A stretch of DNA of 64,000 nucleotides from Membranipora membranacea. Taxonomy: Eukaryota; Bryozoa; Gymnolaemata; Cheilostomatida; Membraniporidae. Below, one piece after another: positions 7,777 to 61,900 of the stretch; positions within the stretch are counted from its first letter, which is position 1; each line of letters starts with the position of its first letter. The DNA is taken from contig OU612074.1 of assembly GCA_914767715.1 (NCBI GenBank), positions 449,501-513,500 on the forward strand, given 5' to 3'. A program made the translations under genes and the position numbers. Under the pieces are notes generated by a model that ran no database searches, was not told the origin of the DNA, and worked only from the letters and a program-made list of their open reading frames with translations.

Positions 7777-8177
7777 ACCCTAACTCTGAGTCTGGGAGGC
7801 TCAGACTGACCCTAACTCTGAGTCTAGGAGGCTCAGACTTACCCTAACTCTGAGTCTGGGATGCTCAGACTTACCCTAGCTCTGAGTCTAGGAGGCTCAG
7901 ACTGACCCTAACTCTGAGTCTGGGAGGCTCAGGCTTACCCTAACTCTGAGTCTGGGAGGTTCAGACTTACCCTAACTCTGAGTCTGGGAGGCTCAGACTT
8001 ACCCTAGCTCTGAGTCTGGGAGGCTCAGACTTACCCTAACTCTGAGTCTGGGAGGCTCAGACTTACCCTAACTCTGAGTCTGGGATGCTCAGACTGACCC
8101 TAACTCTGAGTCTGGGAGGCTCAGACTTACCCTAACTCTGAGTCTGGGAGGCTCAGACTTACCCTAACTCTGAGTCT
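7777..8177. repeat. 32-bp minisatellite, about 12.5 copies
   Basis: Tandem units begin ACCCTAACTCTGAG and include the short inverted repeat AGTCTG..CAGACT. Copies differ at only a few positions (GGAGG/GGATG, CTAAC/CTAGC, CTTAC/CTGAC). On the minus strand most units contain GGGTAAGTCTGAG, a good match to a 5' splice site. One related unit lies in the opposite orientation near 9409-9436. Confidence 0.95.
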
Positions 8178-42836: not shown

Positions 42837-45800
42837 TCACAAAGCATCTTCAGCTTTGTGAAATACAAACATCGGTCGACGAAATCCTACAACATTAAGT
42901 AATAATAAAAATCTATATAACAGGCGCGGTAAAGAGTGTAGTTGTAGAGGCACTAGCTGCGCAGGCGCTACTATAAAACACATTGCCCTGTGTCGTGTAT
43001 TATGCAGTGTAGTTATGTCATGTAACTCATCATTGTTCCCTCGTATGGATAAACATAATCCTTAAAGTGACAGTCCTATTAGAAAACTGGATATATTACC
43101 CCAGTAACTCGAATATTGTGAGTTCCAAGGGCAAATAAAATTAATATAAATAAAAATTGTGGAAAATAGAATCTTAGTTTTATTTAAATATTTTAGCAAG
43201 GATCATAGTGGATCATAGTGGTCAGGGGGAGGCAATAAATCACTATGATCAACTATGATCCCAATTTTCAGACTTTGCAGCGGTTTTACTGCAACTAGGT
43301 TCACAGGCTGTTTCAATTCATATGCCCTAATGACTTTTCAGCCTGAGATCTTTAAAACCATACCAAACATGGCCTAGCAGGACTGTCACTTTAATGTCTG
43401 AGATTACATATTTTGTCGGTTTGACACAGTGTGATTGATAAGACGATTAGCAAGACGCTATCTGGATTGGCCATAAATTTGTGGTCATTATTGCCTACAG
43501 GTTCAACTCTCCTATATTCCCTAACTAACTCACTATGACATCATTTGTTGATATTTTCCAGTGGGCCTACTTACTTGGGACCCCCAAGATTTTTCAAAAA
43601 TATTACACACAGGATACACAACTCTTATACACAAACTATATCAATCCTGATCTCAATGCAGACACATCATGTGTGTATACCTATAGTTGCTGGGGACACT
43701 AGTTGTGGAGGTAAAAGTCGCGGAGGCACTGGTTGTGGAGGCACTAGTTGCGGGGGCGCTAGTTTTTGAGGCACCGATCGCGGAGGCTCTACTTGTGGAA
43801 GCCCCTAACTTACCTTTAGCCTGATGGTTTTGTACACCGAGCCTCTCACATGTAGTAAATCCCACATCAGCAGATAACAGATACTCAGTAAACTGATCGG
43901 GCTTTAGAGTTATCTCTGAGAAGTGATTCCTTATCTTATCCTGCCAGACATGAAATTATAACCATTAAATACTTCTCTCCACAGCCAATTAGAAATGACA
44001 CCAGATAGAACTTCCCCGATTCCATTTGTAGAGGTATGACATAAAATAGTCACTGAGGACCACACTTCCTAGGATTCATTTTAATTTATTTGTAGTGATT
44101 GTGACACAACAAGGTTTTTGGTATCATTCTAGAGTTCTCAGTCTAATTTAGATTGCTGCTGTTATTTCACAAACAGTCCGTGGAGAAATTTAAAGAGATT
44201 TCCACTCAAATTTGAGATGAAAAGTTGCTAAAAGGGTACAAAGTTCATCATGTTATGTACAATATAGTAAGTTTTTAGTACCTTCTCATCTCAACTATGA
44301 GTGAAAATCAGGGCCACAGGCTGTAATAAACTTTATAGTAGTTTCATAAATCAGACTGAGAACTCTAGAATGATAACAAAAACCTGATTTTTGACAATCA
44401 CTTTAGGCTAGTTTGGGGCTGTCTATGTGTTAGTGGTATGGCGAACTTTGCCTGCCGTAATTACTTCGCTCTTAATGATCATTATTATTTTCATTTTTCA
44501 TGTAATTTATTTGTATTATAAGCATACTCACGGTTAGATTTGTATTATAAGCATACTCACGGTTAGATTTGTATTATAAGCATACTCACGGTTAGATTTG
44601 TATTATAAGCATACTCACGGTTAGATTTGTATTATAAGCATACTCACGGTTAGATTTGTATTATAAGCATACTCACGGTTAGATTTGTATTATAAGCATA
44701 CTCACGGTTAGATTTGTATTATAAGCATACTCACGGTTAGATTTGTATTATAAGCATACTCACGGTTAGATTTGTATTATAAGCATACTCACGGTTAGAT
44801 TTGTATTATAAGCATACTCACGGTTAGATTTGTATTATAAGCATACTCACGGTTAGATTTGTATTATAAGCATACTCACGGTTAGATTTGTATTATAAGC
44901 ATACTCACGGTTAGATTTGTATTATAAGCATACTCACGGTTAGATTTGTATTATAAGCATACTCACGGTTAGATTTGTATTATAAGCATACTCACGGTTA
45001 GATTTGTATTATAAGCATACTCACGGTTAGATTTGTATTATAAGCATACTCACGGTTAGATTTGTATTATAAGCATACTCACGGTTAGATTTGTATTATA
45101 AGCATACTCACGGTTAGATTTGTATTATAAGCATACTCACGGTTAGATTTGTATTATAAGCATACTCACGGTTAGATTTGTATTATAAGCATACTCACGG
45201 TTAGATTTGTATTATAAGCATACTCACGGTTAGATTTGTATTATAAGCATACTCACGGTTAGATTTTTCTTTTTGACATAAGATGGCCACATCTGTGGCT
45301 CCATTACCAGGATACCTCCAGGTTTTAGCTGAAGGAACATCCTCTTAAAACATCTCTTCAGTCCAGCATCACCTATCAAACAATACATAACATTAAACCA
45401 ACGCCGCCGCACAAGCAAATGTGTGCACAACTGATCATAAAAATCAGGGCATGACATTTATTATCTACCGTATCATGTGACGTTGCTACCGTCTCTCTAG
45501 TGGATATTAATGACATCATCGGCTAGTTCGTCAATCTCGTACCCTGATTTTGAAGATCAGTTCTTGCTAATATTTTGCTCATTAGGTGACGATTCTGAGA
45601 TTAAAGCCTCAATAAGTTATCTGAGTGGCAGCAGTAGTTTAAGCACAATATTGTGAATTAAGATAAGAAACTTTTTTCTTTAAATGTTAATTGGCATACA
45701 AAAATTTTGAATAACAAGTTGTTTTTTAAACTCAAACAGAAGTAATCATTCTCAAATTGGCAAAAGTGAAAGTAACCAATGTGATACAATTTGATACTTT

Positions 45801-48800
45801 AAAATGAAACAAATTTGGTAGATCAAATTTATGTTGGTGGAGTTCAAACTTGAAGCAACGGTAGGGGCCAACAAATCATTTGGGCGGAAAAGTGAAAATA
45901 TTTATCCCTTTGGTTTTATATTATAATTCAGAAGAGTGGTCTCAATATAGAAGTAACGCCAGCAACAGTTTATGAAGCGTAGCTAGCCTTATTGCGTAAG
46001 AAATAACTGCATATTACTCTAAATAAGATGCCATAGAGCTTTGCACCCCGAAAAAAAGTGAAAACATTGAACAATTAGGAGTTGTCCCCTCTTTGATGGT
46101 GTACAGATAACTCCCACCTTCATTCATAATTATGGAGCCTTCACAGAGTTTGCTACAAACTGCCAGTTATCACCAACAGCTGATGGGAGAGAATGTTTGT
46201 TTCAATTTTAGTCCCCTGCTGTTTAGACTCAAAATGAGTCCGGAGTAACTCGGCTCATCAACATTTTGTTATTACTGAGAAACAAATGAATTCTTTCTTG
46301 CATCCATATAAGAATCATGGTAATGACCTCACCACAGTAAGAATGATAAAAGTGGAGGGTAGCTAAGAACAGATACATAAAACTCTTACTCACCATTGTT
46401 GAGGTGCATCCATTTGGTGACACTGAATGCCAGTATAACATTGAACTCTGGTCTGACTGTAGCCAGGAGAGCGTCAGACTCTAAACAGTAGTTACCCTGC
46501 AAAATAACATTATACACAGTGTATTAATTACATCAATTACAATCAATAGATAGAACTGCAGCAGTGATTGAGAAGGTCAGTGCAGTTTAGTCAAATCCAA
46601 ACAAGCAGATTGTGGTAAAAATTCAACAGGGTTACGACAGACTAGAGGGGCTTTGATAGAGTAGTAGATCACATCTCAAGCTTTAATACTATCATTATTG
46701 CTACTGTGTTTACACTTGGCCTCCATTAACTGATTAGATTTAAAGGCCCGTAAGAATAAGAATTTATTGAAACTCTCGCAGAAACCATGGAGATGTTTTA
46801 AAATACAAAAGTGTAGTATGACAAAAGAACTAGATAGCCCATTTGTCAAAACACCTTTTGGCCTACTTTGCAGTTCGGCACCCAGTGAGAGCTACATACC
46901 ACCAGGGAGGGGGATGTTCCCTGATACCTCTCCCTCCCCCATCCTGTCTTGACAAGCTATACCTTTATCCGATAGATTAATCATAAGATTCTAAATTTGT
47001 TGTGCAGTTCAAGAGATACTCACATGGTAAAAGGATATGTTGTCAGGAAATGAATTCCTCACAGACTGTTTTGTGATTGGTTTTGATTGAGAGCTTGTGG
47101 TGTCCTGAGGACTAGACTCATCATCAAGTGCAGGAGCACTTATAGGGCCAAATGTGGAGGAGCAGCCGGCGGGAAACGGCTTGTAATTCTGTAAATCCTA
47201 GAAGGAAAAACTCAAGATCTCAATTAATCCCACAATGTAAGTTTCAATATCATATATTCTCTTCCTAAACAAAGCTTACAGCAGCAAACTTTAGGCAAAG
47301 AGTCTGATAACATGTCAAACTTATCTACAATATGAAAATGTGAACAAAATTTCAAAAACTTTAGTTCAGCAAATTCTTGGTTTGCAAAATCAAAGTTGCG
47401 CGATTATAGATTTTTATATGTTGCATGAACATGTATAAATACTAATATTTTTAGTTATCATAGTATTTATACTTTAATGGTTGGGTGTTTATGGAATTAT
47501 AAACTGTGCTGAAGTTATATGGATGGACATACCTGGGTTCCTACCTGGTAATGACGGATATTTTTACGGGCTATGCTGACTAGTTTACTGTCTATATCTA
47601 CCCCTACCACTCTCTCTGGAGCGTAATCACGGGCTATCGTCAATGTGACGTGGCCTACAAGGTAGATACATAGTCAGCTGAAAGTTAGTGATGAGAGGAA
47701 TATCAGAAGATAAGATCAGCAACAAAAGAAACAAGCTTACTAACAGCACAGTTAGAAGGTAGCAGCTTTTAGAATTTGCAGAATTTGTTCTCAATCCAAT
47801 AATGTATCCCTTATCTGACAGAATTAACTATGGTCAGCGCCGTGTATACATGAGCTCTTAGACCAGTGCTGCCACACAGCCAAATGTGAGCTTATAGTAT
47901 AATAAATAATTTGCACAAACTGATCGTCAATTTAGGGTATGAAGTTAATTATCTGCCACAACAGGTGACGTAGTTACCGTCTTACTAGTGCAAATTGTAC
48001 ACTTCATAAGCTGGTGGTAGATTTCATGTCCTGATTTTGAAGATCAGTTTGTGCAAATTATTTGCCCATTAGGTGACAATTATGAGATTGAAGTCTCAAT
48101 TAATTATCTTGGAGCTACGCAGATTTCAATGACCACAAATTTCCATGAGTGGCAGCAGTAGATCTCCTAGCAGGATTTCATTCAAGACAAATCAGCAACA
48201 CCATGTCGTGCGCAAGAGTCTTTTACATAACTGTTCAAATTTTCATTGCATTTGAACAAATAGGGGCTCCTTGGCAGCTTCTCAAATACACCCATGTCTA
48301 TCAGCCGCCTCAAAAACATGCCTCAGTTGATGAAGGCTTTTGATGATGCGTGTTATTTCCTCATGATTATATATACCATAATTACCGAGTTCCTATTGGC
48401 TAATAACTAAGCATAAGTCATGTGACATTATGGCTTATCAACTCATATTCAAAACTGAATTTTGCACTAAACTGTGGTATTTTTAATGTATCAGTTGATT
48501 TAATCCTCAACATTTATGTCTGTATTCTCATTTTAAACTCACCAACACATTCTGGATAATGAAATAATCAAATTATATCTGATTTTAACCAGGCATTATA
48601 CCCCAAAGGTCACATGACTTATGCTTATGACTTATTAGCCAATAGGAACTCAGTATGAATGGTATATATAATCATGAGGAAAAAACACGGATCATCAAAA
48701 GCCTTCATCAACTGAGGCATGTTTTTGAGGCGGCTGATAGACATGGGTGTATTTGAGAAGCTGCCAAGGAGCCCCTATTTGTTCAAATGCACTGAAAATT

Positions 48801-51800
48801 TGAACAGTTATGTAAAAGACTCTCGCGCACTACATGGTGTCGCTGATTTGTCTTGTATGGAACCCTGCTAGGAGATCAGATATTATGATAGTGTGTGTGT
48901 GAGGCAAATTAGCTGAAAAACTCACCAATATTGCAGCCAATATCAAGTATAGCTTTATTGCAGAGCCACGAGGGTTTGATAGCTTGAAGTCTCGGGTCTG
49001 TCTCCATCTTATCTGTTGAGCGATAACCGTAGTATCTATTATAGTTACCTGTCAGAAGATAATGATGATAATATACAAGTACTGGTCATATTAATTCTGA
49101 GCCCCCCCCCCCCCCCCCAGACTATGCCCCACCCGACGGCACCCGGCCGGGGAGTATCATATTACATACATTAAACTATTAAAAATTCAGTTCAGGTCTA
49201 GAGGGGGTACGCGGATTGGCCAATACCGGTTATATTTGTATTGAGTGAGGCAACAGTAGAACAGTTATCTTTGTCAATAGGACGTACGAATTTATTGAGC
49301 TGTTATGAGGATGGGTTAGCTTTATACATACATCACACAAAATATAAATTCTTAAAAACACAATTTGACAGTACAGAGACACAGCCACAGCAGCCCGCAC
49401 ATACCATGTATGAAGAGGGGCGGAGGTCTCTTCTTCTTGTCTTGTTTCCCTCTGTACTGCGAATGTTGTGGTTGTGTCTGAGCTGACACTTCACCACCAG
49501 TAGTAGTAGTAGTAGTAGTAGGTTTAGTAGACTTAGGCACCGCGGAGGAGGAGGAGGATTGTTTGCTAACTGAGCTGTTGATCTGTTTACTGTGAAGGCT
49601 TTTTTGACTGTGCTGATGTTTCAGATTTCGATTATTAGCTGTGGAGGATTTCTGTGAGTGTAAGTTAGATTTGTGCTTAGCAGGCATCTCTAAAATATAA
49701 AATAATACAGTGCGGTTGTCTGATCACAAGATAGCAGCCTCATCTCGAAGTATCATCAATTGTCAAGTTAAAATTGGGCAGCGAGATTGATCGCCGGAGA
49801 ATATCCCTACATCCAAGATAAGAAACAAATAACACAGGCTACAGGATGACCGGTTGTAATATTTAAATTCGCTGGATTGTATCATTCGATTTCAATGTAT
49901 CACAAAACCAATGCTTGGTGTCTCATTTTTTCAACATTACCTGTTGGTTTCTCTTTGACACGACTACCTTGGCCAGTATCAGGTCTTATTTCTGCTTTCT
50001 GTACATCAGCTGTCTCCGTCTTAGGTGTGTCTGTCTTTAAAGACTCTGTATCATACAATAAAAAAGCACATTAGTTACACAGGAGTTGTCTTTTCCGGAG
50101 ATTGTTCTCCAAAGAGCAGACAACTTTGGACTGCGAGCGGGATTTACACTCATAAACTCCCTCTTTATTACAAAGTTACTGACACTGAATCAATTGCAAA
50201 AACTAGGCTGTTAGCCTTTTCTGCTTAAGCACATATTTATGTCCAAGTTACAATTTACCATCTGATTGTTTGCCATTAGTAGAAGGTACTCCACTCGGAT
50301 CCTCTCCGGTCTGTTTTGTCTTCTCATCGATAGGGTGAGCTAACCTGTCCATAAGCTCATCTAAAATCAGCGAACATGTCAACAGCTCAGACACCACAGG
50401 CATCAACAACATTATCAATAATAGAAGCTGCAGAGTGCATAGCAAAACAAAGAAGCTTCCCAAATACAAACAAATGCTGAGGGAAAAATCATTGGAAAGC
50501 TTCGTTGGGTTAGTCAGTATTGAGGGGGGGGGGGGGGGGGAAAGGAGTGGACGGGTTGGGTTGGGTTGGGTGCTATGACTTAATACTTAATACCAATGTC
50601 TCTCAATTCATATGGCATGGATAGTCAGATTTGATTAGGGCACCACACACTACCTGATGAGTTGTACGGACCTGTTTGAGCAGCAGTTTTGTCACTACTT
50701 AGTTTAGCAGCAGCACCCTTCACCTCCCCATCAGAATCACTGAAGTCTATCTCTAACTTCTGTAGTAACTTCTTAGATACTCTCTTTCTCTTGTATCGCA
50801 TCTGAGCTGTAAAAAACAACACAATGACACTTTCGGCACAAAATTTCCTCCATATCCACAATGGAGTGACAACACCAAACATTGAAGTCATGGAGTCCTT
50901 GAGTACACAGAATAGAGTCAGGGAGGTGGGAGGGTATATATCATCTCCCTTATACAGTCTGGGAGGTGACACTGACAGATCTTCTGCCATTTCAACTTTG
51001 TTTATTCATTAGTATGGGTAAATCAAAGTACTGACAGAGTCTGTGCACCCTAGAATTATAATGAAACAAGCCAAGTGAGCAAATCGATAGCAAACAGATC
51101 ACGTAGACGTACCAGTTGGACTGAGTAACTCAGCAGCGGCAGCTCCATCATCTCCTGACATCGTGGCGGCAGCAGCAGCAATATCAACATTCAGATTCAG
51201 AGGATCCGTTATATTAGTAATCTTAGGTACATTCCTAGGCTGAGTTCTTGCATTCTCTGTGGCAATAGCATTAGGGGAAGGTACAGGTGACGGCCCCGTA
51301 CGGTTCTCAAGATTAGATAAGTTGAGTGGATCCTTCACACTTCCGCCCTGGTAACAGATGAACATAACATTGTAATATATTGTGATATTTTCACGTCAAA
51401 GGCTAATGTTTAGCAAATACCGAAAATCTAAAACCGATTTAAGTTTATTCCTGGAGGCTGATGTTTGAGCACTGCAGAAGCAATTGTGTCAGTTACATCC
51501 TGGAAAATACCTTCAGTAATGGGAGATGAACCTATTCAGACAAACCCACATGATACGAGGTGATAGTGGGATTCATTTTGTGGTAATATATCGGTCTCAT
51601 AAGCACTTTACTTCCACAAAAAGGCATTTTTTTTCCTTCAAAGACAAAACACCTGCTATAAAATACGTCATATATAGATTGGGGAAGGAAAAAAACTTTG
51701 CATTGCACATTGCATAGCTTCAGCTATAAAACTTATGCTGTGAGTTAGTAACTCTTTAGAAAAAAAAACTCAAGTCTTCTGGTATGATCAATGATTTCTA

Positions 51801-54800
51801 GGACACCTACCATCTTTTCTGTCGAATACTATTCGCTTAGGGACAGTAAGTGTACAAGAAGACAGAGGTCAAAGATCTGATGCCGCTTTTGATGACACGT
51901 TACGGAACAGTACATACATTGAGTTACTGCTTACCAGCCTACAGAATTACTTCACTCACTTACTGCAGCTTCAGAGATACACCCATACCTTATAAAAGCT
52001 AGGCATGATAGGACGAGGTCGGGATGCTGAATATCGTCTCTTCTTAGCCGATCCCGGAGCTCCGCCTCCATGTCTCTCATCTGGAGTGTGACTCTGTCTG
52101 TAAACGAGAAAAACACTCTCTGTTACATCATTACTAGGAGGGTTGTAGGCCACTCTCTGTTACATCATTACTAGGAGGGTTGTAGGCCACTCTCTGTTAC
52201 ATCATTACTAGGAGGGTTGTAGGCCACTCTCTGTTACATCATTACTAGGAGGGTTGTAGGCCACTCTCTGTTACATCATTACTAGGAGGGTTGTAAGCCA
52301 CTCTCTGTTACATCATTACTAGGAGGGTTGTAGGCCACTCTCTGTTACATCATTACTAGGAGGGTTGTAAGCAACTCTCTGTTACATCATTACTAGGAGG
52401 GTTGTAGGCCACTCTCTGTTACATCATTACTAGGAGGGTTGTAAGCCACTCTCTGTTACATCATTACTAGGAGGGTTGTAGGCCACTCTCTGTTACATCA
52501 TTACTAGGAGGGTTGTAGGCCACTCTCTGTTACATCATTACTAGGAGGGTTGTAGGCCACTCTCTGTTACATCATTACTAGGAGGGTTGTAGGCCACTCT
52601 CTGTTACATCATTACTAGGAGGGTTGTAAGCCACTCTCTGTTACATCATTACTAGGAGGGTTGTAGGCCACTCTCTGTTACATCATTACTAGGAGGGTTG
52701 TAGGCCACTCTCTGTTACATCATTACTAGGAGGGTTGTAGGCCACTCTCTGTTACATCATTACTAGGAGGGTTGTAGGCCACTCTCTGTTACATCATTAC
52801 TAGGAGGGTTGTAGGCCACTCTCTGTTACATCATTACTAGGAGGGTTGTAGACCACTCTCTGTTACATCATTACTAGGAGGGTTGTAGGCCACTCTCTGT
52901 TACATCATTACTAGGAGGGTTGTAGGCCACTCTCTGTTACATCATTACTAGGAGGGTTGTAGGCCACTCTCTGTTACATCATTACTAGGAGGGTTGTAAG
53001 CCACTCTCTGTTACATCATTACTAGGAGGGTTGTAGGCCACTCTCTGTTACATCATTACTAGGAGGGTTGTAGGCCACTCTCTGTTACATCATTACTAGG
53101 AGGGTTGTAGGCCACTCTCTGTTACATCATTACTAGGAGGGTTGTAGGCCACTCTCTGTTACATCATTACTAGGAGGGTTGTAGGCCACTCTCTGTTACA
53201 TCATTACTAGGAGGGTTGTAAGCCACTCTCTGTTACATCATTTCTAGGAGGGTTGTAGGCCACTCTCTGTTACATCATTACTAGGAGGGTTGTAAGCCAC
53301 TCTCTGTTACATCATTACTAGGAGGGTTGTAGGCCACTCTCTGTTACATCATTACTAGGAGGGTTGTAAGCCACTCTCTGTTACATCATTACTAGGAGGG
53401 TTGTAGGCCACTCTCTGTTACATCATTACTAGGAGGGTTGTAGGCCACTCTCTGTTACATCATTACTAGGAGGGTTGTAGGCCACTCTCTGTTACATCAT
53501 TACTAGGAGGGTTGTAGGCCACTCTCTGTTACATCATTACTAGGAGGGTTGTAAGCCACTCTCTGTTACATCATTACTAGGAGGGTTGTAGGCCACTCTC
53601 TGTTACATCATTACTAGGAGGGTTGTAGGCCACTCTTTGTTACATCATTACTAGGAGGGTTGTAGGCCACTCTCTGTTACATCATTACTAGGAGGGTTGT
53701 AGGCCACTCTCTGTTACATCATTACTAGGAGGGTTGTAAGCCACTCTCTGTTACATCATTACTAGGAGGGTTGTAGGCCACTCTCTGTTACATCATTACT
53801 AGGAGGGTTGTAGGCCACTCTCTGTTACATCATTACTAGAAGGGTTGTAGGCCACTCTCTGTTACATCATTACTAGGAGGGTTGTAGGCCACTCTCTGTT
53901 ACATCATTACTAGGAGGGTTGTAGGCCACTCTCTGTTACATCATTACTAGAAGGGTTGTAGGCCACTCTCTGTTACATCATTACTAGGAGGGTTGTAGGC
54001 CACTCTCTGTTACATCATTACTAGGAGGGTTGTAGGCCACTCTCTGTTACATCATTACTAGGAGGGTTGTAGGCCACTCTCTGTTACATCATTACTAGGA
54101 GGGTTGTAGGCCACTCTCTGTTACATCATTACTAGGAGGGTTGTAGGCCACTCTCTGTTACATCATTACTAGAAGGGTTGTAGGCCACTCTCTGTTACAT
54201 CATTACTAGGAGGGTTGTAGGCCACTCTCTGTTACATCATTACTAGAAGGGTTGTAGGCCACTCTCTGTTACATCATTACTAGGAGGGTTGTAGGCCACT
54301 CTCTGTTACATCATTACTAGGAGGGTTGTAGGCCACTCTCTGTTACATCATTACTAGGAGGGTTGTAAGCCACTCTCTGTTACATCATTACTAGGAGGGT
54401 TGTAGGCCACTCTCTGTTACATCATTACTAGGAGGGTTGTAAGCCACTCTCTGTTACATCATTACTAGGAGGGTTGTAGGCCACTCTCTGTTACATCATT
54501 ACTAGGAGGGTTGTAAGCCACTCTCTGTTACATCATTACTAGGAGGGTTGCAGGCCATTAATATATCATGACATACATCATACACACTGAGTTAATCTGT
54601 AGGTCAAGTCTAGTAGGATGATAAATGAAATGGAAAAATGCTCTGAAAGCCTAAAGTGTCTGGGTCATCCAGCTGCTACCAGAGATGTTAACTTACAAGA
54701 TCACTTTAATTTAAGATATTTACACCCACCTGCGTTTCTTAGCAGAACCCGCGTTATTGGAGCTGTTTTGTCCTCCACCAGTTGATTTGCTCGCTGAGAA

Positions 54801-54890
54801 TGTGACATTAGTACCAGCACCACTACCAGACGGTGCAGCACTGTCAAACTGAGTCGTGTGAGTCGGTGTCTTCACCTCGACACTCATCAT
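42837..54890 (-). CDS. MEPCE: 7SK/snRNA 5' gamma-methylphosphate capping enzyme, MEPCE/Bin3 family (14 exons)
   Basis: Minus-strand exons: 54890-54730, 52097-51989, 51347-51113, 50806-50654, 50360-50259, 50045-49941, 49689-49405, 49048-48926, 47654-47545 (or 47533), 47197-47024, 46496-46394, 45372-45257, 43940-43814 and 42886-42837. All phases fit, giving 650 aa (human about 689). The enzyme methylates the gamma-phosphate of 7SK RNA with SAM and stays in the 7SK snRNP that restrains P-TEFb. The N-terminal 380 residues are disordered and basic, with the family motif DPLNL. The methyltransferase domain starts at [10 protein letters not shown] (384-393). SAM motif I is [10 protein letters not shown] (417-426) and the acidic motif is VGVDID (442-446). 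It continues with [22 protein letters not shown] (571-582), LKPDQF and [11 protein letters not shown]. Exon 12 ends inside a 29-bp minisatellite. A poly(A) signal reads in from about 42808. Confidence 0.93.
43062..43394. mobile_element. TTAA-flanked MITE, copy B (piggyBac-like)
   Basis: Same TIRs as 26790-27197 (AAAGTGACAGTCCT), bounded by TTAA, in the opposite orientation to copy A. It has the same internal GGATCATAGTGGATCATAGTG hairpin. It lies in the last MEPCE intron. Confidence 0.9.
43690..43800. repeat. Degenerate 18-bp GC-rich tandem repeat
   Basis: About six imperfect copies of GGCACTAGTTGTGGAGG-like units. It lies 14 bp downstream (gene sense) of the exon 13 donor of MEPCE, so it is also next to a 5' splice site. 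Confidence 0.7.
44513..45266 (-). repeat. 29-bp minisatellite, 26 near-identical copies, containing the exon 12 donor
   Basis: Exactly 26 units (754 bp), identical as far as I can read. On the gene strand each unit contains AAATCTAACC then GTGAGTATGC. The copy nearest exon 12 includes the last 10 coding bases of that exon and its 5' splice site, so the other 25 are clones of the exon-intron junction. Extending the exon by one unit reaches an in-frame stop after eight residues. Confidence 0.97.
45415..45640. mobile_element. Repeat family with internal inverted arms, copy 1
   Basis: Matches 47890-48158 along most of its length (CTGATTTTGAAGATCAGTT, CATTAGGTGACRATTMTGAG, AGTGGCAGCAGTAG). Each copy also carries an inverted CTGATC..AAATCAGG arm pair. 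Located in MEPCE intron 11. Confidence 0.7.
47890..48158. mobile_element. Repeat family with internal inverted arms, copy 2
   Basis: Second copy of the family at 45415. It ends at GTGGCAGCAGTAG, directly against the long foldback palindrome at 48163, suggesting nested insertion. Located in MEPCE intron 8. Confidence 0.7.
48163..48874. mobile_element. 712-bp foldback (palindromic) element
   Basis: Arms of about 260 bp begin GATCTCCTAGCAGG and contain TTTTACATAACTGTTCAAA, GCCTCAAAAACATGCCTCAG and CATAAGTCATGTGAC. They are inverted around a spacer of about 180 bp (48424-48606), with a few mismatches. A diverged solo arm exists at 29456. It is located in MEPCE intron 8, only 52 bp from the exon 8 donor. 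No transposase. Confidence 0.88.
52114..54555. repeat. 37-bp minisatellite, 66 copies, in MEPCE intron 1
   Basis: Exactly 66 units fit 2442 bp. Most differ only at a G/A before CCACTC (TAGGCC/TAAGCC), plus rare changes (AGAAGG, TTTCTAGG, GACCAC). The array fills nearly all of intron 1 and stops 16 bp before exon 2. On the gene strand each unit holds CTAGTAATGATG (branch-point-like) and GTAACAG (acceptor-like). Confidence 0.97.
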
Positions 54891-55904: not shown

Positions 55905-58900
55905 ATGAAGAAATCATTTAAGACCGCTTTCAAACCACCCCTCGGGGAAAATTCCAATACAACAGCAACACAGAAGCCAAAGGAACCAAGTAAACAGGTA
56001 TGTTCACCATACATGACAAGTTGTTGTTGGCAGACCCAAAAATAAGGAGATTTTCCGCGGACAACCTCCTGATCCGGAGTACCACTCTGCGTCCCGCAGT
56101 ACGAGTGCAATTTGGCCCGCGCTTGTCATATTTCTAAGCTAAAACTTGAGTGTTCATATTATGAATCGCGTCATTCTACCTGATTTTACAAATTAAATAG
56201 TTGTAATTTATCCGAACTATAAAAGAATAGTGTGGCGAAAAAGGAAATACATAGGTATATGTACTGTTTCCCATGCGAAAATAAGCTTCAAAAATTTTCT
56301 TAGTGAAGAGAGCTGTAAAAAGGGAGATCGGGAGGTGGTGGAAAATACCCCTAAAAACTGGGAGGCTCCCTACCAAAAAGGGAGACTTGTCAGGTATGAT
56401 TTTCACAGAGTTGTGTTAGAATTACTGCTTTGTTGTTGTTTTTGTTGCTGTTAGTGTTAGTCAGTGATAATAAGTCATAATTATTATAAAAATAGTCATG
56501 TATCATAGTGTTAGTTAGTGTTGTCATGTATGTCATGCATGCATGCATGTTGTTGAGTGAGGCATAGCAGCTTAAGGTAGCCTGTCTGGACAAGCTTGTC
56601 AAGATAGGCGAAGTGAGGCATATATATAATTTATTTATATCATGTATATATATATAGATGGACTACTAGTAGGTAGAGTAGCAGTGGAGTGACTCACTGC
56701 ATGGGCCCCTGGGACTTACATGTCTTTACTTTGCCAATGTCCACTATCGACCACCCAAAAAACTGGTGTTTTTTGGGTGGTTGATAGTGGACATACATTG
56801 GCAAAGTAAAGACATGTTAGTCCCAGGGGCCCATGACTCACTGTTGTCACTCCACTGTGACGTGAGTGTGAGCACAGACAGCAGGTCACTGACAGTTAAT
56901 TTGATGAGTTGCAGCCTTGTGTGTGTGTGGTTTGTGTTTGTTGTGGTGAAGATGGGAAGCTGTGCATGAACCATGTTATCGCGGCTGCGCAGCTTTTGTA
57001 CCCGCCAAATGCGTTGCTCAGATGAGTCACTTCTCTCTCATCGGTCAGAATAATATTAATATTCTGACCAATGAGAGAGAAGTGACTCATCTGAGCAACG
57101 CATTTGGCGGGTACAAAAGCTGCGCAGCCGCGATAACATGGTTCATGCACAGCTTCCCATCTTCACCACAACAAACACAAACCACACACACACAAGGCTG
57201 CAACTCATCAAATCAACTGTCAGTGACCTGCTGTCTGTGGTGTGAGTGTTTGTTAGAGTTACTTACTAACAAAATAAGACTAGAGGTGGGCTCTCCTCCT
57301 TTTGCAGCAGGCAGCTCCTGTTATCATGATTGACAAACTATTCAAAATCATTCATCATAATCATCAATCAATTCATACTTACACAACAATAAGCTGCAGT
57401 TAGGGGTCTAGACAAGTCTACTCTAGTCTAGTGCTAGTAGTGGCTCTCTTCATCATTCATGAAAGGAAAATAATTCTCAGCCACTAGCATAGACACACTC
57501 ATCATCTTTCTGTGTTTTGTTCTAAAAGTGTGTTGTTGTTTACACTCACAGAGTATCAGCATATTCGCAGACCTGCCACATTAAGTCCTATCTACTAGCT
57601 CATTGGCAAGCGTTCAAAGAAAAATTGCGATAAATCTGCCTCTTATTATTCCAAATTATTTTCCAAATCCTTGCCTACTACTAGTTTTCAATGGTGCTGA
57701 TGCTGATCAAAAAACATTTTTTCATTATGATGAGCGATTTTCAAGATATGCCCAGATCAGCTACGTTTTCCTATGCTGCTGTGTGTGTTCAAGACAACTC
57801 TGGGAATAGGTTCAAATTCAAGCGCAGAAAACTGTCTATATGTGCTCAAGCGTTTTGCAGGGAATACTTGTGGATGTAGTTACATCACTTCCACTCCCTT
57901 GGTAGTTAACAGCTGTCAGGAATGCTATGCAGTTCAGGATCAATCAGGTGCTCACATTTTCTGATCTGGTCAGGACCAGAGGATTTATTATTCGTTAGTT
58001 TATTAGTCAGATTTTGCTCACCTTATGGAGATACGTCTTCTGCCCTGGGAGGAACACAGCTAATGTGGGACATAGGCCTATCATTTTTTTAAATCACGTC
58101 TAGTGAAATTCATTTCAAAAAAAGAGGTGAACTGGTTAGCGAAGTAAATTTTGAAAACTTACAAACAGCTCGACCACCCAATAGCGCACTGCCTGGGGCA
58201 AAGATTGCTTTTTGAGACACATGTGCATTTATATTAATAATAAAATTGTTTAACTACTTTTTAATTATACTATTTTTGCGTGCAAGGTAACTTCATTATT
58301 TTTTAGCAGAGTACGTCTACCAGCAAACTTTTTCTCGCAACTTATATAAATAATATAAATCAGTCAATCAGTAAACGTGTGAAATATTATCAGTGTGAGG
58401 TTTAGGTAGCCATTAAGTCCAGTTTTTATTTTGTAGAATGCCTTGACAGTGCGTTCTCTGACAGATGAGGAATATGACTCACTGTTTGATAATGTGCTGA
58501 AGAGGATGAGAGATGAGTATCCATCACAACATTCCACACAGGGTGAGGACGAGGAGACCTGTCACCCCAGTCAGGTAACAAAGCTAGTCAGGTAACACGT
58601 CACAAAGCTAGTCAGGTAACATGTCACAAAGCTAGTCAGGTAACACGTCACAAAGCTAGTCAGGTAACACGTCACAAAGCTAGTCAGGTAACATGTCACA
58701 AAGCTAGTCAGGTAACACGTCACAAAGCTAGTCAGGTAACACGTCACAAAGCTAGTCAGGTAACACGTCACACAGCTAGTCAGGTAACACGTCACAAAGC
58801 TAGTCAGGTAACACGTCACAAAGCTAGTCAGGTAACATGTCACAAAGCTAGTCAGGTAACACGTCACAAAGCTAGTCAGGTAACACGTCACAAAGCTAGT

Positions 58901-61900
58901 CAGGTAACATGTCACAAAGCTAGTCAGGTAACACGTCACAAAGCTAGTCAGGTAACACGTCACAAAGCTAGTCAGGTAACACGTCACACAGCTAGTCAGG
59001 TAACACGTCACAAAGCTAGTCAGGTAACACGTCACAAAGCTAGTCAGGTAACACGTCACAAAGCTAGTCAGGTATGACATACCACAATGAATCTCTCATA
59101 CCAGTTCTACTATAGGTCATATCTGTAAGAATTCAATAAAAAATTTTCTTATCTGAGAATACAGCTGATGCTCTGAAGCCATCATCCATCACTTCTGCCC
59201 ATAGTCAATTGCCTGCTGATAATGTTAAAATAAATGTTGTACCTTTGAGCGTGTTGGCGAGCTGCTCTGAACCAATTGAAGGGTGATTTTAATCTCTGCA
59301 CAAAATATGTCTCTATTTGACACTACGGAGGGCACATAGAGCCCTGCATAATGTGTTACCAGTCAAAGAAACATTCTAAGTGTCTGTCTTGTCTGCATTT
59401 CCCGCATTGGAAGAATAATTAGCAGTTGTGTATTTATTACTGCAGGGCTCTAACAAAGAGTATGCTACACTTGAGCCAGTGCGTCCTGATCATGAGCTCA
59501 ACACTGTCATCGAGTAAGTTACATTACAACTATAATCACTGCTAACTGAACCAACCTATTGTTAGGCAATGGCTCATTTCAAATCCCACCAATTTTATGA
59601 TAACCCATTAAAATTGTCTTTCAGGCTTAAATATCAGTTGAATTCTCAAAATAAATCCTTCATTTCTAGAACAGCGGCTCTTACTGTGTCCGACTGCCAT
59701 CACCTCTTACGCAAAAATATTTTGAATCCTTCTCTTTCTTATACCAGGAATTTCTTTCTAATCAAAATACAAGAAATTACTTTTAACTTGCAGAGCCGCC
59801 CTCGATATGGGAGAGCCAACTGGCACTCAGCAGATAGCATCTCCACCACAATCTTCAGTAACACCTTCGAGCTCTCAGTCTAAGTTACTCAGCACACCAT
59901 CTCAGTCTAAGCAGGAGATATGGCGGGCAGTCAGCCCCGTCCCGCAGATAAGAGAGAGTAATCAAAGGAAAAAAGAGAAGACGAAAAAGTCAAATGAGGG
60001 GAAACCTTCTTTCAGGTAAAGTAGAGTATCTGTTTGTCTAGTGTTTTTTCACATGATACACTCTTTATAATGTGAGCAACTACTTATCACTATTTACCAG
60101 TATAGCTTTGGTTATGAGATAAACATAGGCTCAAGGCAATGTCACCATCCTGCAACAGCATTTATCACCAATATAATTTTAACAGTAACACTGTTATAGC
60201 TTCTATTCTATTTGTGTTTTAGTCTAAAAAGCTTTCGCCAAGAGGAAAAGTCTGAGAGAAAGGCCATTAGGTAAGGAAGCTTCATACTGACTCTCGTGAT
60301 CTGACTGGGCATGTAGATCACTGATAAACTAGGCTATAGTTACCACAAAGTAGATGTCGTAAGGCTAAGTATAAATCATGCGTGACTTTAAATTGCGCAT
60401 GTGCAAGAACAATGAGTTTAGTCTAGGTTCTGAGAGAAAATTTGGTCAGGGAGAATGGGATAGCCCCTGCATGAACTGCCAATCAAAATCAGCTAATAGC
60501 GACAAGAGAGAATAACTATCAATATCAATCCCGCACGCATCGAAGAGCATACCACCAGAGCAGGTAGCCAATCAGATGGCTTCGGAATTCCGAGGCTCAA
60601 TTTTGCAGAGATCAGCTCATGCCCAGAGCTGAGCATGCGCAGAATGAGGAAGCTTAGGTGTTGTAAAGCTTTGGCAAATGGCCAGGATAGCTATACAGGC
60701 TAAACGGGTACAGACCTAACCATACAAACAGTTTAGACCAGGATTTGTGCCCTCATGGCCAGAAGGAGGACAACTCTAATAAACGCTGATTTAATGTTTC
60801 CTATTATTTAACTGGAGAAGCATAACCATTGAGGGTTACTGGGCATAACTGAATGTAATAATCATATAATGTATACTATAGTTTATTTAGGACCATTCCA
60901 TTTAGAAATAGTAGAGTACTTCTAATGAGTTTTGCTTGCAATATTCCCTCTTATTGACAATACAACCCAAAAATGTAACTCTCTGAGTCATTCTAGGGGG
61001 TCTTTCAATTAGAAACAGCTAAAATCGCAATATTATCGCTCACTCACTGAGTGAGCGATACTTGCTAGGGGTCTCGCTTTCAGATCGCTCAGTCACTTGA
61101 TGGAACTATATACATTCTGAGTGAGCGATTTGGGAGCGATTTTCTCTAATTGAAACACCAAGTGAGTGATAATTTTGAGCGAAGTGATAGTGATGTGATA
61201 GTGATAACTTGCTTTAGGAAAGGATCACTCTTTCTAATTGAAAGACCCCCCCCCCCCCAGCCTCATCCAAACCTTTATTGCTTCGTTTATACAGAAAACC
61301 GAAAGGTTTGGGTGGCAGCACCTCCTCAAACATTGAAATCACCTCGAAGCAGCCCACCAAGAAGAAAAGTAAACCTCCTCAGAAGAGCACTGCGACCAGT
61401 AAGCCGGCGATCCCTCGGAGTGTGCCACAGTCACCACAAGCCTGGAGCCTAACTCAGGAGTGCTCAAAAGGTAATATATCTGCGTCACAGGTGGGTGGAG
61501 CTCATCTGTGCCATATAGCATTGTAGCCCAGCGCTTGCGGCTCTTGCTTTATATCTCTATGAACATCTATTTACAAACATGGCATTTCTGAATTCTTTTA
61601 GAGCGAGTAGAATACCTTATCGAGAAGACTTTCTAGGTTTCTAACCGGCTGGCCAAAAGCGATTCATCTTCAGCTTCATACCTATATATTTTTTTTAACT
61701 AACAATATATCATATTTAACAGGTAAAGCTGTTTCCTGTAGTATGTGATGCTCAGACATATATAAGTTTCTATATTACAGGTGTGTGGATACAGTGCGGT
61801 AATGTAGAATGCTGTAAGTGGAGATATATAGATTATATACACGATCCGTCTCAGCTAATGGACGTCAAATGGAGATGCTCTGATAATCAAGGTAATCCAA

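What the first reader, a model, noticed from the sequence alone, without database searches (positions are those of the whole stretch)
44513..45266. Minisatellite built from an exon-intron junction: 26 tandem 5' splice sites at MEPCE exon 12
Each 29-bp unit on the gene strand holds the last 10 coding bases of exon 12 (AAATCTAACC) plus the donor GTGAGTATGC, and the exon's own end is the first unit. The spliceosome therefore sees 26 identical donors in a row with identical exonic context. Using any but the first adds 29 nt and a stop codon inside the catalytic domain region (after PQMW, before LKPDQF). Copy number could act as a tunable regulator of productive splicing of a 7SK capping enzyme. 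The exonic 10 bp are also locked to the repeat, so array homogenisation could rewrite codons. The geometry is read directly; the regulatory role is inference.
Basis: partly seen in the sequence, partly recalled or inferred. Interest (0 to 1): 0.9.

Follow-up and report, generated by a model that had tools for sequence, protein, structure and literature searches.

The report
Repeated splice-donor ladder in bryozoan gene
In a sea-mat (bryozoan) gene, the short stretch of DNA that marks where an exon ends has been copied 26 times in a row, and similar ladders sit at several other exon ends in the same genome, giving a natural test of how the splicing machinery picks one of many identical exits.

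Summary
A perfect 29-bp x 26 array (44509-45266) begins inside exon 12 of a 14-exon MEPCE gene: the last 10 exonic bases plus the donor GTGAGT are the first of 26 identical units. The window is bryozoan; assembly size points to Membranipora membranacea. It is not alone. A second donor ladder (24 bp, 58569-59074) ends an exon of a neighbouring ZCWPW-like gene. Genome-wide, three tandem MAG|GTRAGT donors gave 549 matches against 8 for the reversed motif; of the 15 clusters listed, 8 start at the end of an open coding exon. A tandem acceptor pattern gave 40 matches against 15. This matches the 'mirages' of amphioxus and recalls the human IFI6 donor minisatellite, so the kind is known; new here are the phylum, the genome-wide recurrence and the donor bias. 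Best reading: recurrent tandem amplification of 5' splice junctions, tolerated because the first donor is used; any later donor in MEPCE adds 8 residues and a stop. The 'tunable regulator' idea is untested; published mirages are reported to splice normally. I saw no RNA data.

The parts
44509..45266 (-). Donor-ladder minisatellite: 29-bp unit AAATCTAACC|GTGAGTATGCTTATAATAC, 26 full units, no mismatch
45257..45372 (-). MEPCE exon 12 (116 nt); its last 10 nt (45266-45257) are the exonic part of unit 1
44509..45256 (-). Intronic part of the array: 748 of 1316 nt of intron 12
43814..43940 (-). MEPCE exon 13 (acceptor TCTGGCAG, in frame with exon 12 through the first donor)
42837..54890 (-). MEPCE-like gene, 14 modelled coding exons, 644 aa
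58569..59074 (+). Second donor ladder: AGTCAG|GTAACA at 21 places; first spacing 17 nt, the next 11 shown all 24 nt; the last 6 nt of the exon are in the repeat
58437..58574 (+). Exon of the neighbouring gene whose end seeds the second ladder; the first four modelled exons (55905-60015) read through in frame; zf-CW and PWWP ORFs lie further downstream on the same strand

Best explanation
This is a 'mirage'-type minisatellite: a short tandem duplication across the exon 12/intron 12 boundary of MEPCE that later expanded, probably by slippage or unequal exchange, to 26 copies kept identical by recent expansion or homogenisation. The first (exon-side) donor is the productive one; the other 25 leave with the intron. 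Such ladders persist because extra copies downstream of a working donor leave the protein intact as long as the first donor wins, whereas a later donor would truncate it. The same process has acted at other exon ends in this genome, with a bias to donor over acceptor junctions. Shown: geometry, reading frame, poison consequence in MEPCE, recurrence, and enrichment of tandem donors over the reversed motif. Inferred: first-donor use in RNA, the mutational route, and tolerance as the reason for the donor bias.
For: Perfect array and 10 shared exonic bases. First-donor product aligns without gap to MEPCE homologues. Second donor ladder in the window and a third in a 200-kb sample (C2:5097535-5097629): 3 of the 11 arrays with period >=10, >=3 copies and >=80% match in 264 kb. 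Genome-wide triple MAGGTRAGT: 549 matches against 8 reversed. The 8 form 4 clusters in the whole genome; the 100 listed of the 549 form 15 clusters on C1, C2 and C3 up to 34.6 Mb. CAGGTAAGT x3: 33 matches in 11 clusters against 0 reversed. Single-motif counts in 200 kb are 15 (6 inside one ladder) and 10, so abundance does not explain it. Of the 15 clusters, 8 start at an open coding stretch with an acceptor. Acceptor pattern TTTYNCAGG x3: 40 matches in 7 clusters against 15 reversed matches. Placement test: 2 of 3 large arrays in the MEPCE-ZCWPW span begin at a donor in gene direction, reached in 0.5% of random placements (2.4% without the direction rule; span, tolerance and 17 donors chosen after the fact).
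Against: No RNA evidence for which donor is used. From memory, tests of two identical donors in one transcript often favour the intron-proximal copy, which here would be poison. Across 86 arrays of >=1.9 copies in 264 kb, only 4 had a donor score at p <= 0.05 against random stretches, about the chance number, and MEPCE's own unit had p 0.18. Of the 15 clusters, 3 share one 17-bp unit (2 seen to lack an open exon, the third not fetched), 1 shows no exon (L049) and 3 are unresolved (L053, L055, L057). The donor and acceptor patterns are not matched for how often real sites fit them. Only the ITPR exon has a strong homology score; four others score below Pfam's cut-offs, three of the eight have no Pfam match, and the phosphatase one is weak (E 0.09).
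Confidence: 0.72

Rival explanations
1. Copy-number-tunable splicing regulator: the ladder diverts part of MEPCE pre-mRNA to later, poison donors, and copy number sets MEPCE output.
For: Donors 2 to 5 lead to a stop after 8 added residues and the later ones read through the same stop; units are identical, so local donor strength is equal. A C. elegans intronic minisatellite is reported over-represented near multiple alternative splicing decisions (passages of PMC4039745).
Against: Mirages in amphioxus are reported not to disturb splicing. The same architecture occurs at other genes. With shuffled units repeated in tandem as null, the RNA fold of the MEPCE repeat is not unusual (p 0.09).
Confidence: 0.1
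2. The array came first inside coding sequence and one unit was recruited as a donor, creating or shifting an intron (intron gain or sliding from tandem repeats, as proposed for amphioxus globins).
For: The model exists for mirages. In L054 about 22 of the 26 bases of the unit resemble the exon end by eye, 7 of them contiguous and identical.
Against: In MEPCE only 10 of 29 bases are exonic and the two homologues aligned show no missing or extra residues at the junction.
Confidence: 0.1
3. Donor junctions are a mutational hotspot (for example through transcription-linked structures or breaks at exon ends), and the bias is mutational rather than a matter of tolerance. This can hold together with first-donor use.
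For: Enrichment of tandem donors although arrays elsewhere in introns should be tolerated equally.
Against: No mechanism observed; some donor-motif arrays carry no evident exon; no enrichment across all 86 small arrays.
Confidence: 0.25
4. Assembly artefact.
For: Perfect repeats can be mis-sized in assemblies.
Against: 66-fold HiFi reads (if the species match is right) should span 758 bp; the same architecture recurs with different units at other loci.
Confidence: 0.03

Closest known systems
Amphioxus 'mirages' (Adh3, globins BflGb6/BflGb9, troponin C, PGBD5)
   Same: Minisatellite-like tandem duplications spanning exon-intron boundaries, many units carrying splice signals, reported not to disturb normal splicing; Adh3 units of 10-72 bp cover the size seen here (passages of PMC3087553 and PMC3902484).
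   Different: Those are lancelets and the passages describe single genes; the two globin cases have units of about 150-160 bp and both donor and acceptor boundaries are duplicated. Here: Bryozoa, 26 identical 29-bp units, a genome-wide count, acceptor arrays rarer.
Human IFI6 (6-16/G1P3) minisatellite giving multiple splice donors
   Same: A minisatellite supplies repeated donors (title of Turri et al. 1995 and an introduction sentence in PMC4526556; the 1995 paper is not held).
   Different: In IFI6 two downstream repeat units are used as donors and give isoforms; here use of a later donor in MEPCE would truncate the protein.
Intron gain by tandem genomic duplication
   Same: Tandem duplication involving splice-type sequence (search listing and start of abstract of PMC4974935).
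   Different: Here the intron exists and only its donor edge is multiplied; no new intron is shown.

Membership tests
Mirage (minisatellite of an exon-intron boundary) | Tandem repeat unit spans an exon-intron boundary and includes exonic bases | tested here: met
   10 exonic bases identical to unit 2
Mirage (minisatellite of an exon-intron boundary) | Units carry the splice signal | tested here: met
   26 of 26 full units carry ACC|GTGAGT
Mirage (minisatellite of an exon-intron boundary) | Within-array homogeneity | tested here: met
   0 mismatches over 758 bp; recent expansion and homogenisation cannot be told apart
Mirage (minisatellite of an exon-intron boundary) | Normal mRNA is spliced from the authentic junction | not testable with these tools
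   No transcripts available; frame and homology favour donor 1
Mirage (minisatellite of an exon-intron boundary) | Length polymorphism or somatic instability | not testable with these tools
   Only one haplotype held
IFI6-type donor minisatellite producing isoforms | Downstream donors give alternative protein isoforms rather than truncation | tested here: not met
   Donors 2 to 5 give a stop after 8 residues; later ones read through the same stop
Tunable splicing regulator | Copy number or donor choice changes output | not testable with these tools
   Needs RNA and several genotypes

The most novel reading that the evidence does not exclude
In this bryozoan an active, genome-wide process preferentially amplifies 5' splice junctions into ladders of identical donors, so that exons in many genes end in many equivalent exits. 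Splicing must then rely on position (first donor out of the polymerase, or exon definition) rather than on site strength, and homogenisation of the ladder can overwrite the last codons of exons.
Probability: 0.35. Interest if true: 0.78.

Novelty: new member of a known kind. Interest (0 to 1): 0.55.

Why it matters
Identical donors in identical context, 29 nt apart, form a natural competition experiment: whichever donor is used reveals whether splicing reads position or strength. RNA-seq for the presumed species is public (accession), so the question is directly testable. The recurrence across the genome suggests that exon-boundary minisatellites are not a lancelet curiosity, and the scarcity of acceptor ladders suggests that the two ends of an intron tolerate duplication differently.

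Tried and rejected
Structural hiding of later donors: the array RNA folds with donors of different units paired (-36.6 kcal/mol, z -4.09 against ordinary shuffles), but with shuffled units repeated in tandem as null the MEPCE unit is not unusual (p 0.09) and 0 of the 16 units tested reach p < 0.05. Rejected.

Donor strength inside array units: against random stretches of equal length, 4 of 86 arrays in 264 kb reach p <= 0.05, about the chance number; MEPCE p 0.18, ZCWPW-like p 0.06 (weight matrix recalled, from no call). This test gives no support for a general enrichment among small arrays. One of the 4, the 48-bp repeat at C2:5020463, lies in a long open frame on the other strand and was set aside as a coding repeat.

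Purifying selection on donors inside arrays: changes per site are lower in the donor 9-mer than in the rest in 5 of 5 donor-bearing arrays tested, but 4 of the 5 were found by a search that required intact donors, so this is biased and not used. The sixth array in that call (intron 1, 37 bp) has no donor and was set in an arbitrary phase.

Array 7777-8177 as a further exon ladder: its minus-strand unit holds AGG|GTAAGT (p 0.035), but I saw no open exon upstream. Not counted.

A modelled exon of the ZCWPW-like gene started one base too early and gave stops; with the acceptor moved the first four exons read through. The search for a tandem AAGGTGAGT pattern did not complete and was dropped. The 1995 IFI6 and 2002 Adh papers are not held. 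The search for earlier reports in Bryozoa showed 20 of 152 papers, each with zero occurrences of 'bryozoan'.

Full report
What was checked. TRF gives one array, period 29, 26.1 copies, 100% matches, score 1516. A script found 758 bp (44509-45266) with no departure from period 29 and 26 full units AAATCTAACC|GTGAGTATGCTTATAATAC. The unit has 26 exact matches in the whole genome, all here.

The gene. A model of 14 coding exons on the minus strand, all 13 introns GT-AG, translates to 644 residues without a stop. It carries the Bin3 domain (E 1.5e-39) and aligns over its catalytic part to human 7SK methylphosphate capping enzyme (5una, 6dcb; E about 1e-71). The best of 165 protein hits is from the bryozoan Watersipora subatra (65% identity over 61% of the query region). 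The genome held for this window has 339,339,785 bases in 18 contigs; the published Membranipora membranacea assembly is 339.4 Mb in 21 scaffolds, 11 of them chromosomes (abstract start and passages of PMC10290214). The species name is therefore an inference from size and phylum.

The junction. Exon 12 ends ...KKNLT and exon 13 begins DKIRN; both alignments cross this point without a gap. Donor 1 is thus the protein-consistent exit. Donors 2 to 5 each add VSMLIIQI and a stop; every later choice reads through the first extra unit and meets the same stop, after residue 586 of 644.

It is not alone. On the other strand 13 kb away, the exon 58437-58574 ends AGTCAG|GTAACA and that junction is repeated at 21 places, first spacing 17, then 24 nt. 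The first four modelled exons of that gene read through in frame, and ORFs with zf-CW (9.5e-8) and PWWP (1.1e-7) lie further downstream on the same strand, so the gene looks ZCWPW-like; I did not link all exons. Of three large arrays in the MEPCE-ZCWPW span, two begin at a donor in gene direction; random placement reaches two or more in 0.5% of trials, or 2.4% without the direction rule (17 modelled donors, settings chosen after seeing the arrays). A 200-kb sample of two other contigs held 7 arrays under the filter, one of them a 14-bp donor ladder at the end of an exon resembling purple acid phosphatase (weak: 1xzw E 0.09, neighbouring Metallophos ORF E 0.003).

Genome-wide test. Three tandem MAGGTRAGT with gaps of 4-34 gave 549 matches; the pattern read backwards gave 8, in 4 clusters. 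The listing shows 100 of the 549; these form 15 clusters (grouped by eye) on C1, C2 and C3 up to 34.6 Mb. The exact pattern CAGGTAAGT x3 gave 33 matches in 11 clusters on eight contigs, 0 reversed. Single occurrences of the two motifs in 200 kb are 15 (6 inside one ladder) and 10. A tandem acceptor pattern gave 40 matches in 7 clusters, 32 of the 40 at one place on C9, against 15 reversed matches. The donor and acceptor patterns are not strictly comparable, but donors dominate. Against this, scoring the units of all 86 small arrays in 264 kb showed no excess of strong donors (4 of 86 at p <= 0.05). The enrichment is thus seen for arrays with consensus donors genome-wide, not for short tandem repeats in general.

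Are these exons? DNA was fetched for 14 of the 15 clusters (not C3:6.93M; L057 covers only array sequence). Eight begin at the 3' end of an open coding stretch with an acceptor upstream, exon starts picked by eye: L029, L032, L050, L051, L028, L052, L054, L056. Homology: ITPR strong in the PDB search (E 6e-32), though Pfam showed nothing relevant for it; asparagine synthase 8e-4, Csf1_N 6e-4, DUF4149 2e-4 and PHD 5e-3 are below Pfam's cut-offs, as expected of short exons; L028, L029 and L054 have no Pfam match; L028 is weak in the PDB. Of the rest, L033 and L046 share a 17-bp unit and show no open exon, C3:6.93M carries that unit and was not fetched, L049 shows none, and L053, L055 and L057 are unresolved.

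Consequence of later donors. Of ten exon ladders, the script could follow nine (in ITPR the second unit is mutated and the count stopped). Donor 2 gives a stop in 2 of 9, a frameshift without a stop in the added piece in 6 of 9, and an in-frame VSLYHQ insert in 1 of 9 (PHD-like). Donor 3 gives a stop in 8 of 9.

Mechanism. Most likely a tandem duplication across the donor, then expansion, tolerated because donor 1 still works. In amphioxus, mirages were reported to leave splicing undisturbed and to be unstable in length; neither could be tested here. Why the first of 26 identical donors should win is open: from memory, laboratory competitions of identical donors often favour the downstream one. 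A regulatory role is possible but has no direct support yet.

Novelty. Exon-boundary minisatellites are known as mirages in lancelets and as the IFI6 minisatellite in humans. My searches (open-licence library only, capped listings) showed no report in bryozoans and no genome-wide census. I file the array as a new member of a known kind; the genome-wide donor bias is the part that may be new.

Noticed in passing
52114-54557: A 37-bp x 66 array fills 93% of MEPCE intron 1 and ends 16 nt before exon 2, so the likely branch-point region is itself repeated.
   Followed up: partly
7777-8177: A 32-bp x 12.5 array whose minus strand holds AGG|GTAAGT in its consensus unit, without an evident exon upstream.
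   Followed up: partly
L033, L046 (C1:1.89M, C1:10.37M) and C3:6.93M: A dispersed 17-bp donor-like repeat (CAGGTGAGT + STGTGTAG); no open exon at the two places fetched.
   Followed up: partly
G000:C9:25497119-25497984: One large tandem array of acceptor-like TTTTACAGGGTAATGAC units, the main exception to the donor bias.
   Followed up: no
L052: At a PHD-like exon the 18-bp ladder is in frame: each later donor would add VSLYHQ, a potential repeat-length protein isoform.
   Followed up: no
44119-44376: Intron 12 also holds an inverted repeat (GACTGAGAACTCTAGAATGATA and its complement), possibly a small mobile element (by eye).
   Followed up: no
L028: Two similar phosphatase-like ORF sets lie head to tail on the minus strand, suggesting a local gene duplication (by eye).
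   Followed up: no
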